A stretch of DNA of 9,324 bases. Origin: Halobacteriales archaeon QS_9_68_42. Lineage in GTDB: Archaea; Halobacteriota; Halobacteria; Halobacteriales; Haloarculaceae. The notes under the pieces were generated by a model. That model did no database searches, was not told the origin of the DNA, and saw only the letters and a list, made by a program, of their open reading frames with translations. Made by a program: the position numbers and the translations under genes. Shown piece after piece: positions 410-9,324 of the stretch (positions within the stretch are counted from its first letter, which is position 1; each line of letters starts with the position of its first letter). The stretch covers positions 1-9,324 of the forward strand of contig PXSE01000131.1 in NCBI GenBank assembly GCA_003022905.1. Direction: 5' to 3'.

Positions 410-937
410 CTACCTTCCGTCGTACCGCTCGGCGGCCGACTCGAAGGCCGCCTCCTCGAGTTCCCGCGAGCGCCGGCCCTCCGCTTCCGCCAGCGCCTCG
501 GGGTCCGGCGAGGCGTCGTCGTCGATTCGGGCCCACGAGTCGTGTATCTTCGCGTGACACCACCGACAGAGGAACACCGTTATTTCGTGGGACAGCTCCT
601 TGCGGTCGTCGTCGCGGTACTCGAGGTGGTGCTCCTCGAGCAGCGGCCGCTCGTCGTCGTGGGCGTGCCGCCGCTCGGCGAGGCCACAGCGCACACACTC
701 CCGGGAGCGCTGTCGCGCCCGGAACTGCGGGCAGTCAGCCCAGTCCCACTCGCCAGACGGGTCGGCCGCCGGACACCGGAGGCCGTCGGCCCGCCGCTTT
801 CGGGCGAACTCGGGGTCGTGGTGGCCGTGCTCGGCGGCGTACCGGCACCGGCCGTCGTCGGTCAGGTGGTCGCAGCGCTCGACGGTCTCGTAGGGGTCGT
901 CGACGCCGACCGGCGTGCCCTGCGGCGTCCTCTCCAT
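410..937 (-). CDS. HNH-type zinc-binding protein (putative HNH endonuclease)
   Basis: A 175-residue acidic protein. The HNH core is visible: CVRC at 81-84, EEHHLEY at 101-107 and CRWCHAKIH at 124-132. This gives a CxxC...HH...CxxCH arrangement like McrA/HNH endonucleases, where two Cys pairs hold structural zinc and the His residues bind a catalytic metal. A second set of cysteines lies N-terminal (C22, C31, C55, C69) and may bind another zinc. The C-terminal 40 residues are a charged, probably helical tail. I chose the ATG at 937 because MERTPQGTPVGVDDP resembles the start of related haloarchaeal proteins as I recall them, and because the frame upstream runs antisense to the DUF192 gene. It is divergent from that gene (78 bp). 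No partner or cognate modification gene is adjacent, so a restriction role is unproven; substrate unknown. Confidence 0.8.
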   Translation of the reverse strand: MERTPQGTPVGVDDPYETVERCDHLTDDGRCRYAAEHGHHDPEFARKRRADGLRCPAADPSGEWDWADCPQFRARQRSRECVRCGLAERRHAHDDERPLLEEHHLEYRDDDRKELSHEITVFLCRWCHAKIHDSWARIDDDASPDPEALAEAEGRRSRELEEAAFESAAERYDGR

Positions 938-1015
938 ACCGGCCGTGGGGCCGCCCCGGAGTTGAATCCTCCGTCGAGGGGTGACTTTTTGCGTGCCGCC
1001 GTCCCATCCTGCCTC
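938..1015. promoter_or_regulatory. Divergent promoter region, HNH and DUF192 genes
   Basis: This 78-bp gap separates two divergent starts. A T-rich stretch (gactttttg, 982-990) lies about 26-34 bases before the GTG at 1016, and an A/T-richer patch (gttgaatcc, 961-969) lies about 24-32 bases before the ATG at 937 on the other strand. These are the positions expected for TATA boxes of leaderless haloarchaeal transcripts, but neither is a strong consensus match. Confidence 0.3.
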
Positions 1016-1363
1016 GTGCGCGTCGTCCACGAGGCCGACGGCGAGCGCGTCATTGCCAGCGACGTCGACGTCGCCGACGGCCTCCTCTCGAAGGCGCGGG
1101 GGCTGATGTTCCGCCGGTCGGTCCCCGATGACTATGCGCTGGTGTTCCCGTTCCGGCGGGTCCGCCGGCGGAGCCTCCACATGGTCTGTGTTCCGTTCGA
1201 CATTGACGCCGTCTGGCTGGTCGACGGCGAGGTCCGGCAGGTGCGTCGGCTCCCGGCGTGGACCGGACTGGACTGGGCGCGAGCCGACACCGTCGTCGAG
1301 CTGCCGGCCGGGGCCGCCGACGGCGTCGAGACCGGCGATACCGTTCGCGTCGAGGGGCTGTGA
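1016..1363 (+). CDS. DUF192 family protein
   Basis: A 115-residue protein starting at GTG (MRVVHEADGERVIASDV). The family pattern is clear: a short N-terminal strand, then DGLLSKARGLMFRRS (21-35), LVFPF (42-46), the core SLHMVCVPFDIDAVWLVDGEVRQVRRLPAW (53-82) and a C-terminal strand VVELPAGAADGVETGDTVRVE (93-113). This matches DUF192, a small beta-rich fold found in archaea and bacteria, often secreted in bacteria, with no settled biochemical role. There is no signal peptide here, so the haloarchaeal form should be cytoplasmic. The GTG was chosen because family homology begins there; the open frame continues far upstream only because it lies antisense to the HNH gene. The leuA-like gene follows after 90 bp with its own promoter-like signal. 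Confidence 0.87.
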   Translation: MRVVHEADGERVIASDVDVADGLLSKARGLMFRRSVPDDYALVFPFRRVRRRSLHMVCVPFDIDAVWLVDGEVRQVRRLPAWTGLDWARADTVVELPAGAADGVETGDTVRVEGL

Positions 1364-1417
1364 CCGCTCAGAGCCGGGGCCGAGCGCGGACCGGGACGAT
1401 TCCTGCGCCAACCCGCA

Positions 1418-1427
1418 GGTTCATACG
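1418..1427 (+). promoter_or_regulatory. Putative TATA box for leuA-like gene
   Basis: The stretch ggttcatacg (1418-1427) stands out in GC-rich surroundings and lies about 27-35 bases before the ATG at 1454. That spacing fits a TATA box for a leaderless or very short-leader transcript and supports the chosen start. The match to consensus is weak. Confidence 0.3.
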
Positions 1428-1453
1428 TCCCCCCGTCGTCGTGTGGCATACCC

Positions 1454-3109
1454 ATGCAACCCGATGCCGACGAGGATAGAGTAAGTCGCCGCGAGTCACG
1501 CACTGAGGATTCTCCTGTGGCCGACCTGTTCGGTGATCATCCAGCGACGGCTCCCCTCGACGACCGCGACGTACGGTTCCTCGACACCACCCTGCGCGAC
1601 GGCGAACAGGCGCCGGGCGTCTCGCTTTCGCCCGACGAGAAGGCAGACATCGCCCGCGAGCTCGACGCCGCCGATATCGACGTCATCGAGGCCGGTAGCG
1701 CCTGTACCGGTCCCGGCGAGCGGAAGACCATCTCCCGGGTCACCGACCTCGGCCTCGAGGCGCGGGTGACGAGCTTCGCACGCGGGGTCGAGGGGGACAT
1801 CGACCTCGCCGTCGAGTGCGACGTCGACGGCGTCAACCTAGTCGTGCCGGCCAGCGACCGCCACGTCGAGCGGAAGGTCGGCACCACCCGCGAGGCGGTC
1901 GTCGAGCGGACGGTCGAACTCGTCGAGTACGCCAAGGAGTACGGCCTGTGGGTCGAGGTGCTCGGCGAGGACGGCTCCCGTGCGGACCTCGAGTTCCTCA
2001 AGGAGCTGATGGGTGCCGCCGTCGACGCGGGCGCCAACCGGATATGCGCGCCGGACACCGTCGGCCACGCCACCCCCGACCGGACGCTGGAGCTCTACTC
2101 GCGGCTCTCGGAACTAGGGCCGACGTCGACCCACACCCACGACGACCTCGGCCTGGCCGTGACGAACGCCCTGGTCGGGGTCGCCGCCGGGGCCGACCTC
2201 GTCCACGGCACAATCAACGGCGTCGGCGAGCGGGCCGGCAACGTCGCCTTAGAGGAGGTCGCAATCGCCTTAGAGCACGGCTACGGCGTCGAGACGGTCG
2301 ACACCGAGAAGCTCTACGACCTCGGGCAACTGGTATCGACGACGACCGGCGTGCCGCCCGCGCCGAACAAGGCCGTCGTCGGTGAGAACGCGTTTACACA
2401 CGAGTCCGGCATCCACACCGACGGGACGCTGAAGGACGACGCGATGTACGAGCCGTACCCCCCAGAGAAAGTGGGCAGACAGCGCCGGCTCGTCCTCGGC
2501 AAGCACGCGGGCCGGGCCGGCGTCGAGGCCGCCCTCGCCGAACACGGCGTCGACGTCGACGACGAGAAACTGGGCGAGGTGGTCGCCCGGGTCAAGGAGT
2601 TGGGCGAGCGGGGCAAGCGCGTCACCGACGCCGACCTGCTGACGGTCGCCGAGGAGGTCCAGGGCCGCGAGCGCGAGCGCCGGGTCGAACTGGTGGACCT
2701 GACGGCCGCCTCCGGCAGCGGCACGCCGACGGCGTCGGTCCGCCTGGCAGTTGACCGCGAGGCGCTGGGCGCCTCGGAACGGTCGAGCGGCGCGTCGTCG
2801 GAGCCGCGAGGCACGGAGGAGCGGGTCGCCTCCGGCACCGGCAGCGGTCCCGTCGACGCCGCCATCGCGGCCGTCCGGTCGGCGCTCGGCGCCGCCGCCG
2901 ACGCGCAACTCGACTCCTATCACGTCGACGCCATCACCGGCGGCACCGACGCCGTCGTCACCGTCGAGGTGGAGATGTCCCGCGACGACCGCGCCGTCAC
3001 CGTCGCGGCCTCCGATTCGGACATCACTACTGCCTCCGTGCGCGCGATGGTTGACGCCCTCGACCGCCTGCTGGCCGACGAGGCGACGCCCGCCCTCGCC
3101 GACGACTGA
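1454..3109 (+). CDS. leuA: 2-isopropylmalate / (R)-citramalate synthase family protein
   Basis: A 551-residue enzyme of the DRE-TIM metallolyase family, joining acetyl-CoA to a 2-oxo acid in leucine or isoleucine synthesis. The catalytic barrel includes [14 protein letters not shown] (42-55), holding the metal ligand D44 and the R48-D49 pair, the metal-binding HTHDD (227-231), NGVGERAGN (255-263) and [11 protein letters not shown] (311-321). From about 415 to the end is the LeuA-type regulatory dimer domain ([23 protein letters not shown]), which usually carries feedback inhibition by the end product. Within that domain, 436-458 is an unusual Ala/Ser/Gly/Glu/Arg-rich linker. The first 38 residues are variable and lack motifs. 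Substrate choice (2-oxoisovalerate or pyruvate) cannot be read from sequence; haloarchaea often carry two such paralogues. No ilv or leuBCD genes are adjacent. Family certain, exact reaction moderately so. Confidence 0.88.
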
Positions 3110-3120
3110 CGGGTCGTCAG
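3106..3120. terminator. Small hairpin at the leuA/zim convergent junction
   Basis: CTGACG (3106-3111) and CGTCAG (3115-3120) form a perfect 6-bp stem with a 3-base loop. It contains the leuA stop codon TGA (3107-3109) and lies between two convergent genes whose ends are 18 bases apart. It could help end transcription from either side. There is no T-tract after it, and archaeal termination mainly depends on T-runs, so the role is uncertain. Confidence 0.3.
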
Positions 3121-3127
3121 CCCGGCC

Positions 3128-4049
3128 TCAGAGCGGTTCGTGGGTCGCCGACAGTCGGAGCGGCTCCTCGCCGACCCGCTCGAGGCTCTCGACCGTCGGG
3201 AGCCGTATCTCCCGCTCGCTTTCGGTCACGACGCGGGTGTCGTAGTGTCGCGCCTCGTAGTTGACCGTCCCCTCGTTGTCGGCGACCGACGCCGAGCGAG
3301 GACCGTCCCTCGAAAAGCGCCGCCAGCGAGGTGGTGCCGGTGCCGACGAACGGGTCGAACACGGTGTCGCCGCGGACGGAGTACATCCGCACGAGCCGCA
3401 GCGGCAGCTCCAGCGGGAACGCCCCCGAGCGCTCCCGGCGGCCGTCGTCGATGTCCTGTCCGGTGCCGCGAATCTCCCAGCAGTCGGAGAACCACTCGTT
3501 GCGCTCCTCCCAGAAGAACGCCGACGCGTAGCGGTCGGCGTCGTTCGGCGGGAACGCGCGGGTGCTCCCCTTCCGGAACAGCAGGACGTGCTCGTGCTCT
3601 AGGGTCGCGTAGGCGTTGGTCGGTAGCGTGCCCGACCCCATGAACTTCGCGGTGCTGTTGGTCGGCTTCCGCCAGACGACCCCCGGCAACTGCTGGAGAC
3701 CGAGCGACGACAGCGCCTCGACGACGCGGGCGTGGTTGGGGTACAGCCGGAACTCCCCGTCGAGGCGCCGGGTGGCGTCGCCGATGTTGACCGCGACGAT
3801 GCCGCCCTCCCGGAGGGCGCCGGCGACCGTCTCCCAGACGTCGTCCAGCAGGGCGTGCATCGCCTCGAAGGCGGCCTCGCCGTCGCCCGCCGAAAGCGCC
3901 TCGGCGGCCGCGGGGCTCTGGGCGGCGAACGTCTCGTCCCACATCTCCACCATCGGGTACGGCGGCGAGGTAACCACGAGGTCGATGCTCCCGGCGTCGA
4001 CGTCGGCCTCGCGGGCGTCGCCGACCCGTATCTCGTGGGACGTCCTCAC
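3128..4049 (-). pseudogene. zim: Zim-like N4-cytosine DNA methyltransferase, frameshifted
   Basis: The product resembles haloarchaeal Zim, the methylase linked in the literature to CTAG modification. From the GTG at 4049 the frame reads VGDARE (9-14), the catalytic motif TSPPYPMVEMWDE (27-39), NIGDATRR (88-95), GVVWRKP (123-129) and the SAM-binding DPFVGTGTT (232-240). Catalytic motif before SAM motif marks a beta-class amino-methyltransferase. After about residue 252 this frame degenerates into Arg-rich sequence and stops at 3117. A neighbouring frame takes over at about 3284-3295 and reads SVADNEGTVNYEARHYDTRVV to a stop at 3128. The segment normally linking the SAM motif to this tail seems missing, about 40 or more codons by family recall. 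An upstream start near 4310 would run through a repeat-like element and is rejected. It may be inactive, or the break may be an assembly error. Confidence 0.75.
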
Positions 4050-4126
4050 GGGAGGTGGTGGTCCGGAGAGGTAAGGTGTCTTGCGGTCCGTTCCTGAAAA
4101 GTGGTGTTCAGACACGGATTGAGGAA

Positions 4127-4297
4127 TCCAGAAAGCCCTCGGCACTCTCGACTCCCAGGACTCGCTGTCGTCCGAAAATCGGAGATTTTCGTGATCACGG
4201 AAGATCTTCGATCTTCCGAACGACGCTCCTCGGTCGCGATGCTCCCTGTGGTGCTTGCGTCGTCCGGGTTCGCCGAGCGTACCTCGCCCTTTCAGTC
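4127..4297. repeat. Hairpin-rich repeat-like element with imperfect inverted ends
   Basis: Three palindromes sit back to back: CGAAAATC/GATTTTCG (4173-4180 and 4184-4191, loop GGA), CGTGATCACG (4190-4199) and CGGAAGATC/GATCTTCCG (4198-4206 and 4210-4218, loop TTC). The surrounding DNA has imperfect inverted ends: TCCAGAAAGCCCTCGG (4127-4142) against GACTGAAAGGGCGAGG read on the minus strand from 4297 to 4282, with a shared GAAAG core. From memory, related sequence with a GACTGAAAGGGC end recurs between genes in haloarchaeal genomes, which would make this a small non-coding repeat or MITE-like element; I cannot verify that here. It fills most of the gap between divergent zim and aglD. Confidence 0.5.
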
Positions 4298-4412
4298 CGC
4301 CAGGAGTCAATTGATCGGCCGGCAGAAACTGGCTTGCCGGTCAATGCTTATCTGAACACCGCCTCCCGGAAAGACAGAACCTTGATACGCGGGCCTGCCC
4401 GACACACGGCCG
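4298..4412 (+). promoter_or_regulatory. aglD upstream region with inverted repeat and TATA-like box
   Basis: TTGA (4311-4314) plus CCGGCA (4319-4324) are mirrored by TGCCGG (4335-4340) plus TCAA (4341-4344), giving an inverted repeat with a 4-base asymmetry around a 10-base loop. Directly after it comes tgcttatctg (4345-4354), a TATA-like sequence that would place the transcript start near 4375 and give a leader of about 35-40 bases before the ATG at 4413. The inverted repeat sits where the BRE or a repressor would bind. This is inference from position only. Confidence 0.35.
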
Positions 4413-6033
4413 ATGACCGACCGGGAGGTGAGCGTTGTCCTGCCCGCCTACAACGAGGCGGACACCATCGAGCACACCGCCGAGGTGACGCTCGAGACGC
4501 TCGCTTCCTTCCTGCCTGCAGGCGCCTTCGAGGTCATCGTCGCCGAGGACGGCTGCGACGACCGGACGCCCGACATCGCCGACCGGCTGGCCGACGCCGA
4601 CGACCGGGTCCGGCACGTCCACAGCGACGAACGGCTCGGCCGGGGCGGCGCCCTAGAACAGGCCTTCCGCGAGAGCCACGGCGACGTGCTGGCCTACTTC
4701 GATACGGACCTCGCAACGGACATGAAGCATCTCGAGGAACTGGTCGAGTCCGTCCGCCGGGAGGGCTACGATGTCGCCACGGGGTCCCGGCGGATGCCGG
4801 GCAACGAACAGGAGCGAAACCCCGAGCGGGGTGTCGCCTCCACCGGATTCAACTCGCTGGTCCGGCTGTTCCTCCGATCGCCGATGTACGACCACCAGTG
4901 CGGGTTCAAAGCGTTCGACCGCGGGGTGCTGTTCGCGCTGCTCGAGAACGTCGAGGACGACCACTGGTTCTGGGACACCGAGGTGCTGGTCCGCGCTCAG
5001 CGGGCCGGCTACGACGTCCGGGAGTTCCCCGTCGAGTGGGCGCCGAAGGGTGACACGACGGTCGATCTAGTCCGGGATGTCTTCGGGATGGGCAGTCAGA
5101 TACTCCGGCTGTGGTGGCAGGTGGCCATCAGTCCGCGCCTCGACCGCCGGGTGACGACAGCCGCCGGGACGCTGCTCGTTCTCGTCGCCGTCGCGCTGAT
5201 GACGGTGTACCTAGACCCCTCGGCGGTACTCGACGCCGTGGGCAGTGCCGACCCGGCGCTGGTCGGCCTCGCAACGCTCGTGTACCTGCTGTCGTGGCCG
5301 CTCCGGGGCCTCCGGTACCAGGACATCCTCGCGGAGCTCGGCTACCGCGAGCGGGTCGGCTTCCTCACTGGGGCGGTGTTCATCAGTCAGACGGGCAACC
5401 TTGTCTTCCCGGCCCGACTCGGCGACGGGGTCCGGGCCTACGTGGTGAAGGCCCGCCGCGACATCCCCTACCCGTCCGGATTCGCGTCGCTGGCCATCGA
5501 GCGGGTGTTCGACTTGCTGACCATCGCGGCGCTTGCGGGCGGGACGTTCATCGCGCTCGCGGTCGCCGGCGTCGACGTGACTGCCATCGGCGCGGCCGGA
5601 GAGTCGGGCGGCGCCGAGCGGAGCGGCCGGACGGCCGTCTACGTCGCTGGCGGCGTCGGTGCCGCCGCCGTCGCCGCCGTCGGCCTCATCGTGGCGACGG
5701 CCCGCTCGGACCGGAACCTCGTGCGGGCCACGCTCGGCCGGGTCAGCGACGACTCCTACGTCGAGTACGTCGCGGGCGTCGTCGAGCGGTTCGCCGGCGA
5801 CGTCCAGACGGTCGCCGATCGGCCTCTACGAGGGGGCGTTCACGCTCATCGTGGTGGCGCTGACGCCGGTGCCGGCGGCCGTCGCGCTGTCGGCGGCCGT
5901 CGTCGACCACGCCGTCAAGAACGTCGTCACCGTCGTCGGCGGCGTCGCCTCCACGCTGCTGTTCAACGTCTCGCTGACCGCGGCCGTCGAGGAGTCCCGC
6001 GACGTTGAGGATGAGACGGCCGCTTGCGAGTGA
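4413..6033 (+). pseudogene. aglD: AglD-like glycosyltransferase with membrane domain, frameshifted
   Basis: The N-terminal 240 residues are a GT2 family transferase of the dolichyl-phosphate sugar synthase type: VSVVLPAYNEADTI (6-19), VAEDGCDD (43-50), the metal-binding DTD at 97-99, CGFKAFDR (163-170) and HWFWDTEVLVRA (184-195). It would move a sugar from a nucleotide donor to dolichyl phosphate at the membrane. The rest is a multi-pass flippase-like (lysylphosphatidylglycerol-synthase TM type) domain from about 248, with SQTGNLVFPARLGDG (325-339). This two-part design is that of Haloferax AglD, which is needed for S-layer N-glycosylation. After VQTVAD (464-469) the frame fails. A second frame reads IGLYEGAFTLIVVALTP from 5818 to a stop at 6033. 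The membrane segment expected between is absent, roughly 45-50 codons by family recall. The first frame alone ends at 6008 in Arg-rich nonsense. Either broken or mis-assembled. Confidence 0.78.
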
Positions 6034-6204
6034 GTGTATAAACTAACCGCACATCGTCGAAGATTCCGGCGCGAGAGGGGTTCTCCCGAACCGACGCGCG
6101 GAAATAACGCAAAGATTAAATAATTTTCGTACGTTCGTTTAATATCGATAGCTGACCGGGTCTTTTCGGGGTATCCCCCTACCTGGTAGCACCCGCCCAG
6201 TAGC
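6034..6204 (+). promoter_or_regulatory. TFB promoter and leader region
   Basis: A strongly AT-rich patch (6111-6146) lies in the 171-bp gap before TFB. TTTAATAT at 6138-6145 is a good TATA-box candidate, putting the transcript start near 6170 and leaving a leader of about 35 bases. ATTAAA (6115-6120) and TTTAAT (6138-6143) form an inverted pair. A second TATA-like stretch, gtataaac (6036-6043), follows the aglD stop codon. The leader carries two adjoining dyads, GGGG-TAT-CCCC (6168-6178) and CTACC-T-GGTAG (6179-6189), which could be regulator sites; no factor is identified. Confidence 0.5.
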
Positions 6205-7037
6205 ATGAACAAGCACACACGAACGCGAACGACCGAGGAGGAAACGGCGACCGAACGAGACGAGCGTGCCGGCTGTCCGGAGTGCGACGGCGACCTCGCC
6301 GCCAGCGGCGCCGAGACCGTCTGCCAGAGCTGTGGCCTCGTGGTCGAGGCCGACGAAATCGACCGGGGGCCGGAGTGGCGGGCCTTCGACAGCGCCGAGA
6401 AGGACGAGAAGTCCCGCGTCGGCGCCCCCACGACCAACATGATGCACGACAAGGGGCTGTCGACGAACATCGACTGGCGCGACCAGGACGCCTACGGCAA
6501 CTCGCTGGACGCCCGCCAGCGCAGAACGTCCGCGAGACCGCCTCGGTCATCTACCGGCGCGCGCTCGACGAGAACCTGCTGCCGGGGCGCTCCATCGAGG
6601 GCGTCGCCACAGCGTCTGTGTACGCCGCCGCCCGGCAGGCGGGCGTCCCCCGGAGCCTCGACGAGGTATCGAGCGTCTCCCGCGTCGAGAAGAGCGAAAT
6701 CGCCCGCACCTACCGGTACGTCGTCCGGGAACTCGGCCTGGAGGTCAAGCCGGCCGACCCCGAGAGCTACGTGCCGCGGTTCGCCAGCGACCTGGAGCTG
6801 TCCGACGAGGCCGAGAATCGCGCCCGGAAGCTGCTCCGGAACGCCAAGGAGCAGGGCGTCCACTCCGGGAAGTCGCCGGTCGGACTCGCGGCCGCCGCGG
6901 TGTACGCCGCCTCGCTTCTGACCAACGAGAAGACCACCCAGGCGGCCGTCTCCGAGGTGGCCGACATCTCCGAGGTCACCATCCGCAACCGGTACCACGA
7001 GCTGCTGGAGGCCGAACAGGGCCTCGCGGCCGCCTAA
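6205..7037 (+). pseudogene. tfb: Transcription initiation factor IIB (TFB), frameshifted
   Basis: The archaeal TFIIB homologue, which bridges TBP-bound promoter DNA and RNA polymerase. From the ATG at 6205 the first frame encodes the N-terminal zinc ribbon (CPEC at 24-27, CQSC at 40-43), then the reader and linker region: RGPEWRAFDSAEKDEKSR (54-71) and GAPTTNMMHDKGLSTNIDW (73-91). It fails after DARQR (102-106). A second frame takes over at 6519-6526 and encodes NVRETASVIYRRALDENLLPGRS, the rest of the first cyclin repeat and the whole second repeat with SGKSPVGLAAAAVYAASLL, to the stop at 7037. Family sequences have about 40 residues between these points, including the motif RLRKWNERFR, and these are missing. 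Haloarchaea usually have several TFB genes, so loss of one is tolerable; a collapsed assembly is equally possible. The promoter upstream looks intact. Confidence 0.85.
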
Positions 7038-7142: not shown

Positions 7143-7400
7143 TCACCCGTCGACGGCCTCGAGGCTCCGCTCTGCGACCTCGACGAGCGAACTCCAGGTG
7201 TTGAGGCCGGCCCGCAGCGCCACCAAGTCATCGGCGCCGACATTCACCCGGACCGCGGCGCCGTCGCGGAAGACCGCCGCCGCGGACCTGTCGCCGTCTA
7301 TCTCGCCGACCTCCTGGGAGACGGCCGCGGCGACGAGGCCGGCGGCGTCGCTGTCGGGGTAACAGAATGTCAGCGTGGCCGCGTGTGGGCGGTCAGTCAC
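7143..7400 (-). CDS. pcc1: KEOPS complex subunit Pcc1
   Basis: An 85-residue protein. Pcc1 is the small dimer-forming subunit of KEOPS, the cytoplasmic complex that makes threonylcarbamoyladenosine (t6A) at position 37 of tRNAs. The sequence fits the family: a first strand HAATLTFCYPD (6-16), a helix with AAGLVAAAVSQEVGEID, a central pair AAAVFRDGAAVRVNV and a long C-terminal helix LVALRAGLNTWSSLVEVAERSLEAV. That is the alpha/beta layout and length expected. It starts at GTG 7400, 13 bases after the rpoP stop codon, as the last gene of the rpl37ae-rpoP-pcc1 cluster. This gene order is common in haloarchaea and strengthens a call that sequence alone would leave moderate. No other KEOPS gene is in the window. 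Confidence 0.82.
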   Translation of the reverse strand: MTDRPHAATLTFCYPDSDAAGLVAAAVSQEVGEIDGDRSAAAVFRDGAAVRVNVGADDLVALRAGLNTWSSLVEVAERSLEAVDG

Positions 7401-7413
7401 GAGAAGAACGGCG

Positions 7414-7548
7414 CTACTGTACGTCGACTTCCTTGACGTCGCGGCTCCGCTCCTTCAGCAGGACGCGGTGGCCGCAGTACGGACAGCGGACGCCGCCGTA
7501 CTCGTCGAGTTCGACATCGCGCTTGCAGCGGGAGCACTTGTAGCTCAT
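7414..7548 (-). CDS. rpoP: DNA-directed RNA polymerase subunit P (Rpb12 homologue)
   Basis: This 44-residue protein begins [20 protein letters not shown] and continues [24 protein letters not shown]. The two zinc-binding pairs CSRC (5-8) and CPYC (22-25), followed by [10 protein letters not shown], are the signature of RpoP/Rpb12, a small zinc subunit that holds the assembly platform of archaeal RNA polymerase together. The length is the usual one for the family. The ATG at 7548 lies 3 bases after the rpl37ae stop codon, so the two are co-transcribed and probably translationally coupled. pcc1 follows after 13 bases. All four zinc cysteines are kept here, in contrast to L37Ae just upstream. 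Confidence 0.95.
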
Positions 7549-7551
7549 GTC

Positions 7552-7815
7552 TTACGCCTCGTCTTCGCCGAGCGCGGCGCGGATCGACCGCGTGACGGTC
7601 TTGCCGGCCGGCGTCTCCGGGCGGTAGGCGCCGCCGGTGAATGTCTCGCCGGTCTCCTCGTTGACCCAGATGCCCGTGCCGACGCGCTTGACGTCGTCGC
7701 CGTCGACCTGTGCGTTCTCGGTGTCCTCCTCGATCTCGGCGACGCGGCGGCGGGCGACCCGGCCGTATCGGGCTCCGAACCGCCCGGCGCTACCGGTCGA
7801 ACCTCGTTCGGCCAT
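7552..7815 (-). CDS. rpl37ae: Large ribosomal subunit protein L37Ae (eL43), cysteine-free
   Basis: This 87-residue protein belongs to the 50S subunit, where the family binds 23S rRNA. The N-terminus ([23 protein letters not shown], 7-29) and the C-terminal part (GTGIW at 46-50, [24 protein letters not shown] at 59-82) are typical of the archaeal family. The zinc ribbon is not: family members I know have CxxC pairs before and after GTGIW, but this protein has no cysteine at all. The first pair is replaced by a shorter acidic loop ([12 protein letters not shown]) and the second by VNEETGET. There is no frameshift and the gene starts the operon with rpoP and pcc1, so it looks functional. The ATG at 7815 is supported by a TATA-like box 28-33 bases upstream. 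Confidence 0.9.
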
Positions 7816-7842
7816 AGTACCGTATCGTCGGCCCAGCGGACG

Positions 7843-7848
7843 GATAAA
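7843..7848 (-). promoter_or_regulatory. TATA-like box for the rpl37ae-rpoP-pcc1 operon
   Basis: Read on the minus strand, GTTTATCCG (7850-7842) contains TTTATC 28-33 bases before the ATG at 7815. Position and sequence fit a haloarchaeal TATA box for a leaderless or nearly leaderless operon transcript. It sits in the 92-bp divergent gap with the gene at 7908. Confidence 0.5.
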
Positions 7849-7907
7849 CCCCACGTTTCCGCCCGCTCCGGCGACATCCATTTGTCGCCGGCCGCCGAAC
7901 CTCGGGT

Positions 7908-8225
7908 ATGACATCAAGCGGCACGGCCGACCGACTCGTGGTGTCGTACCCGGCCGACCTCAGCGACTGGGGCCGGATGCAGGTCGAGAAGCCCTCGTTC
8001 CGGGCGTTCCTCCGGAAAACCCGCGAGCGCGTCAACCCCGGCGACGTCTGGGAGGAGTTCGTCGGCGTTGGCTGTTGTGGCGACACCCTCGACGTGCCGC
8101 TGCGGGTCGAGTCCGTCGAAGGAGGCGACCGCGTCGGCGCCGAGACGGCAGTCGAGTTCGACGTCCGGGCGGCCTGCGGCCTCGAGGGCGGATGGCTGGT
8201 CCAGAGCGAGGCCGCCCCGGACTAG
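7908..8225 (+). CDS. Small conserved-looking haloarchaeal protein, function unknown
   Basis: A 105-residue acidic protein with no membrane segment or signal peptide. I do not recognise a characterised family. Visible features are a conserved-looking start ([42 protein letters not shown], 10-51), a compact [16 protein letters not shown] stretch (53-68) with adjacent cysteines C56-C57, a third cysteine at 90, and beta-strand-like runs [21 protein letters not shown] (81-101). Codon use and acidity match the neighbouring real genes, which supports coding. It is divergent from the L37Ae operon (92 bp) and convergent with the DUF2103 gene, sharing a CTAG that gives both stop codons. The paired cysteines might bind metal or form a disulfide; this is a guess. 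Confidence 0.75.
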
Positions 8226-8944
8226 TCGCGGAACCCCGCCTCCGCCAGCGCGTCGTTGAGGTCCGCCCGGACGTGCTCGCCGAGCTTCCGCTCGCCGGCG
8301 GTCGTGACCACGCGGTTCTCCTGGACGCTGGAGCCGTCCCGTATCAGCAGCCGGACGTTGCCGGTGTCGTCGGCGCGGGTGGCCTTGGCGCGCACGCCGG
8401 TTTGCGACCCGGAGCCGCCGGCGTCGATGGGCCCGGGGATGATCTTCTTGACGTGCGGGTGGTCGGCGACCGTCTCGAGGACGCGGCGGCCGTCCCGGTC
8501 GCCGATGAGCGTCGAGTGACTCCCGCCGAGTTTCTCGGCGACGGAGGCCTCGACCACCTCGAGGGCCGGGTCGCCGCGCCGGCGCCGGACCGCCTCGATC
8601 GGGTCCTCGTCGCCGACCCGGTAGAAGGGGTAGCGTAACTCGCCCCGGACCGCCCGCAACACCTCGCGGTCGCCGGCGGCGTACACCTCCTCGGGCCGCT
8701 TCCGCCGGGCCTCGTCGGCGACCCGGCCGGCGTAGTTGCGGAGTTCGGTTTGGGCCCACCGCTCGTCGTTGCCCACGGCGGTCGTAACCGTCCGCTGGCC
8801 GACGATTTCGTCCTCGAGCAGGCTGGTGACGGTCGCCCGCTCGCGCTCGCAGTCGACGACGACGGTGTCGGCGTTTTCGCTCCGACAGACCAGACAGTAG
8901 TCGCCCGGCCGCTCGAGTGCGCTCGCACAGCACCGACACTCCAT
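8222..8944 (-). CDS. DUF2103 family protein with N-terminal zinc-ribbon-like motif
   Basis: A 240-residue protein. The N-terminus MECRCCASALERPGDYCLVC has a cysteine-rich ribbon (C3/C6 and C17xxC20). A helical, charged middle part follows (about 60-140). The C-terminal domain SHSTLIGDRDGRRVLETVADHPHVKKIIPGPI...GVRAKATR...GNVRLLIRDGSSVQENRVVTTA (142-216) matches DUF2103, an archaeal and bacterial family described as predicted metal-binding with unknown activity. The ATG at 8944 is chosen because homology starts there and a TATA-like CTTATC lies 24-29 bases upstream. Its TAG overlaps the stop of the convergent gene in one CTAG. The upstream methyltransferase gene ends 37 bases away on the same strand; its own promoter suggests separate expression. 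Confidence 0.85.
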   Translation of the reverse strand: MECRCCASALERPGDYCLVCRSENADTVVVDCERERATVTSLLEDEIVGQRTVTTAVGNDERWAQTELRNYAGRVADEARRKRPEEVYAAGDREVLRAVRGELRYPFYRVGDEDPIEAVRRRRGDPALEVVEASVAEKLGGSHSTLIGDRDGRRVLETVADHPHVKKIIPGPIDAGGSGSQTGVRAKATRADDTGNVRLLIRDGSSVQENRVVTTAGERKLGEHVRADLNDALAEAGFRD

Positions 8945-8967
8945 ACCGCTGGAAGGCGTCTGCGCCG

Positions 8968-8973
8968 GATAAG
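8968..8973 (-). promoter_or_regulatory. TATA-like box for the DUF2103 gene
   Basis: Minus-strand CTTATC lies 24-29 bases before the ATG at 8944, the spacing expected for a leaderless haloarchaeal transcript. It sits in the 37-bp gap after the methyltransferase gene. Confidence 0.4.
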
Positions 8974-8981
8974 TCGGCCGG

Positions 8982-9324
8982 TTACGGCCGGAGCACGCCG
9001 ACGTAGTCGCCGTCCTCGTCGCCGATGACCTCCTCGAGAGTCCAGGGCGTGTCGGCGACGACCGCCCGCATCTCCTCGGGCCCGGCCAGCAGGTAGTCGA
9101 ACCACGGGGTGGCGTACTGGCGGTAGCGGACCCGGATACGGAGCGCGCCGGGCAGTCGCCCACGCTCCCGGTTGCGCTCGTGGTACGCGAGGTGGTCTTC
9201 CTCATCGGTCTCGGTCGGGTTGCGGCTCTCGGCGAACAGGACCGCGTCCTCGCTCGCGACGGCCGCGAGCGCCTCGAGCACCTCCGGGGCGCGCTCGCGG
9301 GTGCCGACCAGCCCGAAGTTGTTG
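8982..9324 (-). CDS. Class I SAM-dependent methyltransferase, C-terminal part
   Basis: Only the last 113 codons are in the window; the gene enters from the right edge, so the true start is outside. The visible part begins NNFGLVGTRERAPEV and contains LFAESRNPTETDEEDHLAYHERNRERGRLPGALRIRVRYRQYATPWFDYLLAGPEEMRAVVADTPWTLEEV. This resembles the C-terminal half of small haloarchaeal class I methyltransferases, where NNFGL/VGT follows the strand after the SAM-binding motifs, and ATPWFDYL plus TPWTLEEV form the last strands of the fold. The SAM-binding glycine motif itself would be outside the window, so the class rests on the C-terminal pattern. The substrate cannot be inferred. An internal GTG at 9281 is not the true start, since the frame and the family pattern continue upstream. 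Confidence 0.7.
   Translation of the reverse strand, partial: NNFGLVGTRERAPEVLEALAAVASEDAVLFAESRNPTETDEEDHLAYHERNRERGRLPGALRIRVRYRQYATPWFDYLLAGPEEMRAVVADTPWTLEEVIGDEDGDYVGVLRP

What the first reader, a model, noticed from the sequence alone, without database searches (positions are those of the whole stretch)
3128..7037. Three consecutive genes each carry one out-of-frame internal loss
zim, aglD and tfb, on both strands, each read as good family members at both ends but switch frame once (near 3290, 5818 and 6523), and at each switch a conserved stretch is absent. The rest of each gene shows no stops or drift. Three similar events in 4 kb next to intact genes are hard to explain by chance decay. 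The leading explanation is an assembly artefact (collapsed low-coverage spots, removed gap characters, strain mixing); the alternative is a run of recent deletions in one lineage. Anyone mining this contig should treat the three products with care.
Basis: partly seen in the sequence, partly recalled or inferred. Interest (0 to 1): 0.7.

Follow-up and report, generated by a model that had tools for sequence, protein, structure and literature searches.

The report
Three gene breaks, probably assembly errors
Three neighbouring genes on this salt-loving archaeon's contig each lack a short internal piece that relatives keep, and the pattern looks more like sequence dropped during genome assembly than like biology.

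Summary
Against intact homologues zim lacks 104 bp (junction 3286/3287), aglD 188 bp (5816-5819) and tfb 121 bp (6520-6523), each out of frame. Close intact alleles exist for two of the three: AglD at 99% over 88% of the query and Zim at 96% over 82%; the best listed TFB is 91%. The joins share only 0-2 bp, the fragments hold no stops, and their dN/dS is mostly like that of intact relatives. A reference-free frame-switch scan gives 3 calls in 9.3 kb here against 5 in 689 kb of named non-MAG loci. Similar blunt losses of about 60-120 bp occur in other drafts: four in about 18 kb of the public MAG QS_8_69_73 against its sibling QS_4_69_225, and three in an unnamed draft, G014. No reads were available, so the artefact is inferred, not shown. 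The leuA2-zim adjacency next to it was not seen in 146 family genomes, but lies between intact genes. Low interest, except as a data-quality warning.

The parts
3128..4049 (-). zim (DNA methylase, Pfam N6_N4_Mtase), 104 bp shorter than the intact form; first part in one frame (4049-3287), end in another (3286-3128)
3286..3287 (.). junction of the 104 bp loss in zim
4413..6033 (+). aglD (glycosyltransferase family 2 plus LPG_synthase_TM region), 188 bp shorter than the intact 602-aa form
5816..5819 (.). junction of the 188 bp loss in aglD (2 bp ambiguity)
6205..7037 (+). tfb (transcription initiation factor IIB), 121 bp shorter than the intact 317-aa relative P0245; zinc ribbon in one frame, TFIIB repeats in another
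6520..6523 (.). junction of the 121 bp loss in tfb

Best explanation
The three losses are local assembly errors of a short-read (probably metagenome) contig. At three spots two correct pieces of the same genome were joined directly and the 104, 188 and 121 bp between them were dropped; the organism most likely carries intact zim, aglD and tfb. Shown: the losses, their lengths, joins with 0-2 shared bases, close intact alleles for aglD and zim, the excess over named non-MAG loci, and similar losses in other drafts. Inferred: that assembly is the cause and that the contig is metagenomic. Not determined: the step that dropped the sequence (gap characters removed, direct joins in scaffolding, or read pairs joined without overlap).
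For: Losses exact and single in each gene. Intact AglD at 99% over 88% of the query, whose tail equals the window's second fragment; intact Zim at 96% over 82%. Full-length single frame in 89 of 90 loci for aglD, 32 of 34 for zim, 65 of 65 for tfb by best hit, possibly a paralogue. Frame-switch calls: 3 in 9.3 kb here, 5 in 689 kb of named non-MAG loci, 7 in 118 kb of G001, 13 distinct in 181 kb of G014. G001, the MAG QS_8_69_73, lacks 83, 118, 108 and 104 bp against G002 in about 18 kb with 0-2 bp overlaps. G014 lacks 115 bp against three genomes and about 56 and 61 bp in its own zim and aglD. Of 13 control pairs of named non-MAG loci, the net differences of 40 bp or more lie at two places in L016, both noncoding. 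Passages of Chen et al. 2020 say uncorrected local assembly errors put incorrect genes in databases and are suspected to be prominent in IDBA-UD (PMC7111523).
Against: No reads were seen. The 18 MAG loci as a group gave only 2 calls in 171 kb, close to the non-MAG rate, though they were found through an intact aglD. One further G001 loss (86 bp, L150 at 1345) has a 14 bp overlap and one (72 bp, noncoding) 12 bp, so not all G001 losses are blunt. One of the four G001 losses, 108 bp, is in frame. dN/dS of the first tfb and zim fragments is somewhat above that between intact relatives (0.21-0.39 against 0.07-0.22, and 0.23-0.29 against 0.17-0.21). It is not known that the window comes from a metagenome, nor that G014 is one.
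Confidence: 0.85

Rival explanations
1. Three real, recent deletions in one strain, possibly carried on only some copies of a polyploid chromosome, each breaking a gene that may be dispensable (dispensability is recalled, not tested here).
For: All three junctions are clean and the three genes are neighbours. dN/dS is slightly raised in the first tfb and zim fragments. The neighbouring leuA2-zim adjacency was not seen in 146 family genomes, so the region may be rearranging.
Against: Close intact alleles for two genes, so the events would all have to be very recent. Joins share 0-2 bp, while passages of a review say Haloferax volcanii has no Ku and repairs breaks by microhomology end joining or recombination (PMC7776575). 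The rate would be about 44 times that of named non-MAG loci.
Confidence: 0.12
2. The contig is a chimera of different genomes, the junctions being places where strains or species were spliced together.
For: The leuA2-zim adjacency was not seen in 146 family genomes, and 7 of 7 relatives inspected share another gene 3' of zim.
Against: From zim to the right-hand end the window is collinear with one genome, G009, at 82-90% identity on both sides of each loss, apart from the losses and intergenic differences. The tail of AglD matches the same 99% protein as its front. The leuA2-zim join lies in an 18 bp spacer between intact genes, where a random splice would rarely fall.
Confidence: 0.03

Closest known systems
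Local assembly errors of metagenome-assembled genomes (Chen et al. 2020, PMC7111523; passages seen)
   Same: A short stretch of consensus that goes wrong inside otherwise good sequence and gives incorrect protein-coding genes.
   Different: The paper's test is lack of a perfectly matching read, which could not be made here; the passages seen do not describe losses of about 100 bp in particular.
Blunt losses in the public MAG QS_8_69_73 (G001) against its sibling QS_4_69_225 (G002)
   Same: Losses of 83, 118, 108 and 104 bp with 0-2 bp overlaps in about 18 kb, most breaking a frame.
   Different: Another genome and, as far as is known, another assembly; one loss is in frame and two further ones (86 and 72 bp) have 12-14 bp overlaps.
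Deletions by microhomology-mediated end joining in Haloferax volcanii (PMC7776575; passages seen)
   Same: Gives deletions in a haloarchaeon.
   Different: Uses short homologies at the ends; the window's joins share 0-2 bp.

Membership tests
Local assembly error (sequence dropped) | No read matches the consensus across the junction | not testable with these tools
   No reads are held for the window.
Local assembly error (sequence dropped) | Intact form present in close relatives of the same population | tested here: met
   AglD 99% and Zim 96% intact; for TFB only 91%.
Local assembly error (sequence dropped) | Excess over isolate-type genomes, with like events in other drafts | tested here: met
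   but the 18 MAG loci as a group show no clear excess.
Microhomology-mediated deletion | Short direct repeats shared by both ends of the deleted segment | tested here: not met
   0, 2 and 0 bp, read by eye against relatives, so uncertain by a base or two.
Ordinary pseudogene decay | Further stops, frameshifts or relaxed selection in the fragments | tested here: not met
   One switch per gene; dN/dS mostly as between intact relatives, slightly raised in the first tfb and zim fragments.

The most novel reading that the evidence does not exclude
The deletions are real: some Natronomonas-like populations carry frequent blunt deletions of about 100 bp inside genes, perhaps on a fraction of their many chromosome copies, made by an end-joining route not known in haloarchaea, and drafts such as G001 and G014 record the same process.
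Probability: 0.06. Interest if true: 0.6.

Novelty: not a real feature. Interest (0 to 1): 0.12.

Why it matters
Mainly as a warning: claims of gene loss or pseudogenes from this contig, and from drafts such as QS_8_69_73, need checking against reads. If the deletions were real instead, haloarchaea would have an unrecognised blunt end-joining process.

Tried and rejected
GC extreme: the relatives' segments matching the losses have GC 0.65-0.75, at percentile 0.12-0.69 within each gene. Repeat-mediated deletion: almost no shared sequence at the joins. Hot spots: P0143 (Zim, 251 aa) and P0090 (AglD, 466 aa) end near the window's zim and aglD junctions, but may be cut by contig ends or interrupted otherwise; their DNA could not be reached. 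Significant clustering: not found. Further out-of-frame losses in the window: none found.

Limits of the scan: it missed the 61 bp aglD loss of L129. Of the three counted calls in L151, two (174, 16701) coincide with measured losses and one (4462) does not; a fourth switch at 994, at the 118 bp loss, was dropped by the gene-overlap filter. The five calls in named non-MAG loci were not inspected. Some loci cover the same bases: L129 and L139 (one call counted twice, corrected), L001 and L150 (one call standing in both the MAG group and G001), L002 and L155, L005 and L134. The first dN/dS run had no pairs of intact relatives for comparison and one meaningless leuA2 value; one search supplied the comparison for the six fragments. 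The control pairs reuse loci and count only gaps that split a match.

Full report
What was claimed.

The window is a Natronomonas-like haloarchaeal contig; the nearest loci are two MAGs, QS_8_69_73 and QS_4_69_225, at about 85% DNA identity over aglD, then Natronomonas genomes. Alignment to intact homologues gives missing lengths of 104 bp in zim, 188 bp in aglD and 121 bp in tfb. A codon-usage scan without a reference places the switches at 3288, 5816 and 6518, and its only other call, at 7553, is an ordinary gene overlap. For tfb the family profile agrees: positions 3-106 lie in one frame and 142-304 in another.

The rest of the window. L101 spans 418-3110 and differs by 10 bp or more at 992-998 (a compensating pair between genes), at 1365-1498 around the divergent leuA2 start, and by 57 bp in frame at 2759; L125 spans 7147-9324 and differs only at 7859 and 7897, between genes. 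Six further loci for parts of the left block show the same places, the leuA2 start up to 1553 and some compensating pairs; L002 lacks much of the 7908-8225 gene, and L129 differs in and after pcc1 and has about 60 bp more at the convergent ends near 8229. From zim to the right-hand end the window is collinear with G009, which its contig length identifies as Natronomonas marina. The leuA2 block lies elsewhere in G009. No listed match in 146 family genomes spans leuA2-zim; 130 of them had some match and the list was cut at its weak end. In 7 of 7 relatives inspected another, conserved gene lies 3' of zim. Since this join falls in an 18 bp spacer between intact genes, a real rearrangement seems at least as likely as a false join.

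Intact forms. The protein database holds a 602-aa AglD at 99% over 88% of the query, whose tail equals the window's second fragment, and a 341-aa Zim at 96% over 82%. The best listed TFB is 91%. In 90 loci (L001-L080, L125-L134; L005 and L134 are one place) a single frame covering at least 90% was found for aglD in 89 of 90, for zim in 32 of the 34 that had one, and for tfb in 65 of 65 by best hit, which may be a paralogue. Of the three exceptions two run off a contig end; the third is L129 of G014, whose aglD also counts as full length although it lacks 61 bp near its start.

Deletion or artefact. The joins share 0, 2 and 0 bp with the alternative arm, read by eye against relatives at roughly 75-90% identity and so uncertain by a base or two. 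Passages of a review say Haloferax volcanii has no Ku and uses microhomology end joining or recombination (PMC7776575). dN/dS of the fragments against four relatives is mostly like that between those relatives, but somewhat higher for the first tfb fragment (0.21-0.39 against 0.07-0.22) and the first zim fragment (0.23-0.29 against 0.17-0.21). The frame-switch scan gave 5 calls in 689 kb of named non-MAG loci, 2 in 171 kb of 18 MAG loci, 1 in 101 kb of other genus loci, 2 in 80 kb of G002, 7 in 118 kb of G001 and, without double counting, 13 in 181 kb of G014, against 3 in 9.3 kb here. Three or more in the window has P about 5e-5 at the first rate and 0.026 at the joint G001 and G014 rate. The window was chosen for having three, so these are guides only. 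That the MAG loci show no clear excess is against a general rule for MAGs, though they were found through an intact aglD.

The same thing elsewhere. QS_8_69_73 (G001) lacks 83, 118, 108 and 104 bp against QS_4_69_225 (G002) in about 18 kb, with overlaps of 2, 1, 2 and 0 bp. The 118 and 108 bp segments are present in the N. marina genome too. Three of the four lie at a frame switch; the 108 bp one is in frame. In another stretch G001 lacks 86 bp in a gene and 72 bp outside genes, with 14 and 12 bp overlaps, which is unlike the blunt cases. Among the 360 listed proteins (best 120 of each of three searches) there are further altered copies from metagenome-type sources: a TFB without 84 residues (P0243), a Zim without 24 (P0159), a Zim (P0138) and an AglD (P0036) with altered ends. 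In 13 control pairs of named non-MAG loci (104 kb aligned, loci reused) the net differences of 40 bp or more lie at two places in L016, both noncoding.

In print. Passages of Chen et al. 2020 say that leaving local assembly errors uncorrected spreads incorrect protein-coding genes and that the errors are suspected to be prominent in IDBA-UD assemblies (PMC7111523). Passages of the Atacama salt-crust paper name IDBA_UD, paired 100-base reads and a driest site Qs (PMC5532433). That the QS_ MAGs come from that paper is inferred from the site code.

Verdict. An assembly artefact is the best explanation (0.85); recent real deletions are the main rival (0.12). Relatives' GC does not explain the spots. 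Reads would settle it.

Noticed in passing
3110-3127: leuA2 and zim stand end to end with an 18 bp spacer; no listed match in 146 family genomes spans this, and 7 of 7 relatives inspected have another conserved gene 3' of zim.
   Followed up: partly
L151 (G001:C3:60001-80000) at 176, 995, 4566 and 16700: The public MAG QS_8_69_73 lacks 83, 118, 108 and 104 bp against its sibling QS_4_69_225, with 0-2 bp overlaps.
   Followed up: partly
L129 (G014:C6:12000-24000) and L147 (G014:C7) at 8587: The unnamed draft G014 lacks about 56 bp in zim, 61 bp in aglD and 115 bp in a third place.
   Followed up: partly
protein P0243: A 238-aa TFB from an ENA contig lacks 84 residues between two EIDR motifs, as if lost between short repeats.
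   Followed up: no
1-123: The left end is 96% and 93% identical to stretches of G002 and G009, and its part 72-124 has many weaker matches in these genomes; perhaps the end of a mobile element.
   Followed up: no
8222-8944: Gene for a predicted metal-binding protein (DUF2103); it and the convergent gene at 7908-8225 overlap by 4 bp.
   Followed up: no
L001 at 10501: A TFB paralogue in QS_8_69_73 also shows a frame switch.
   Followed up: no
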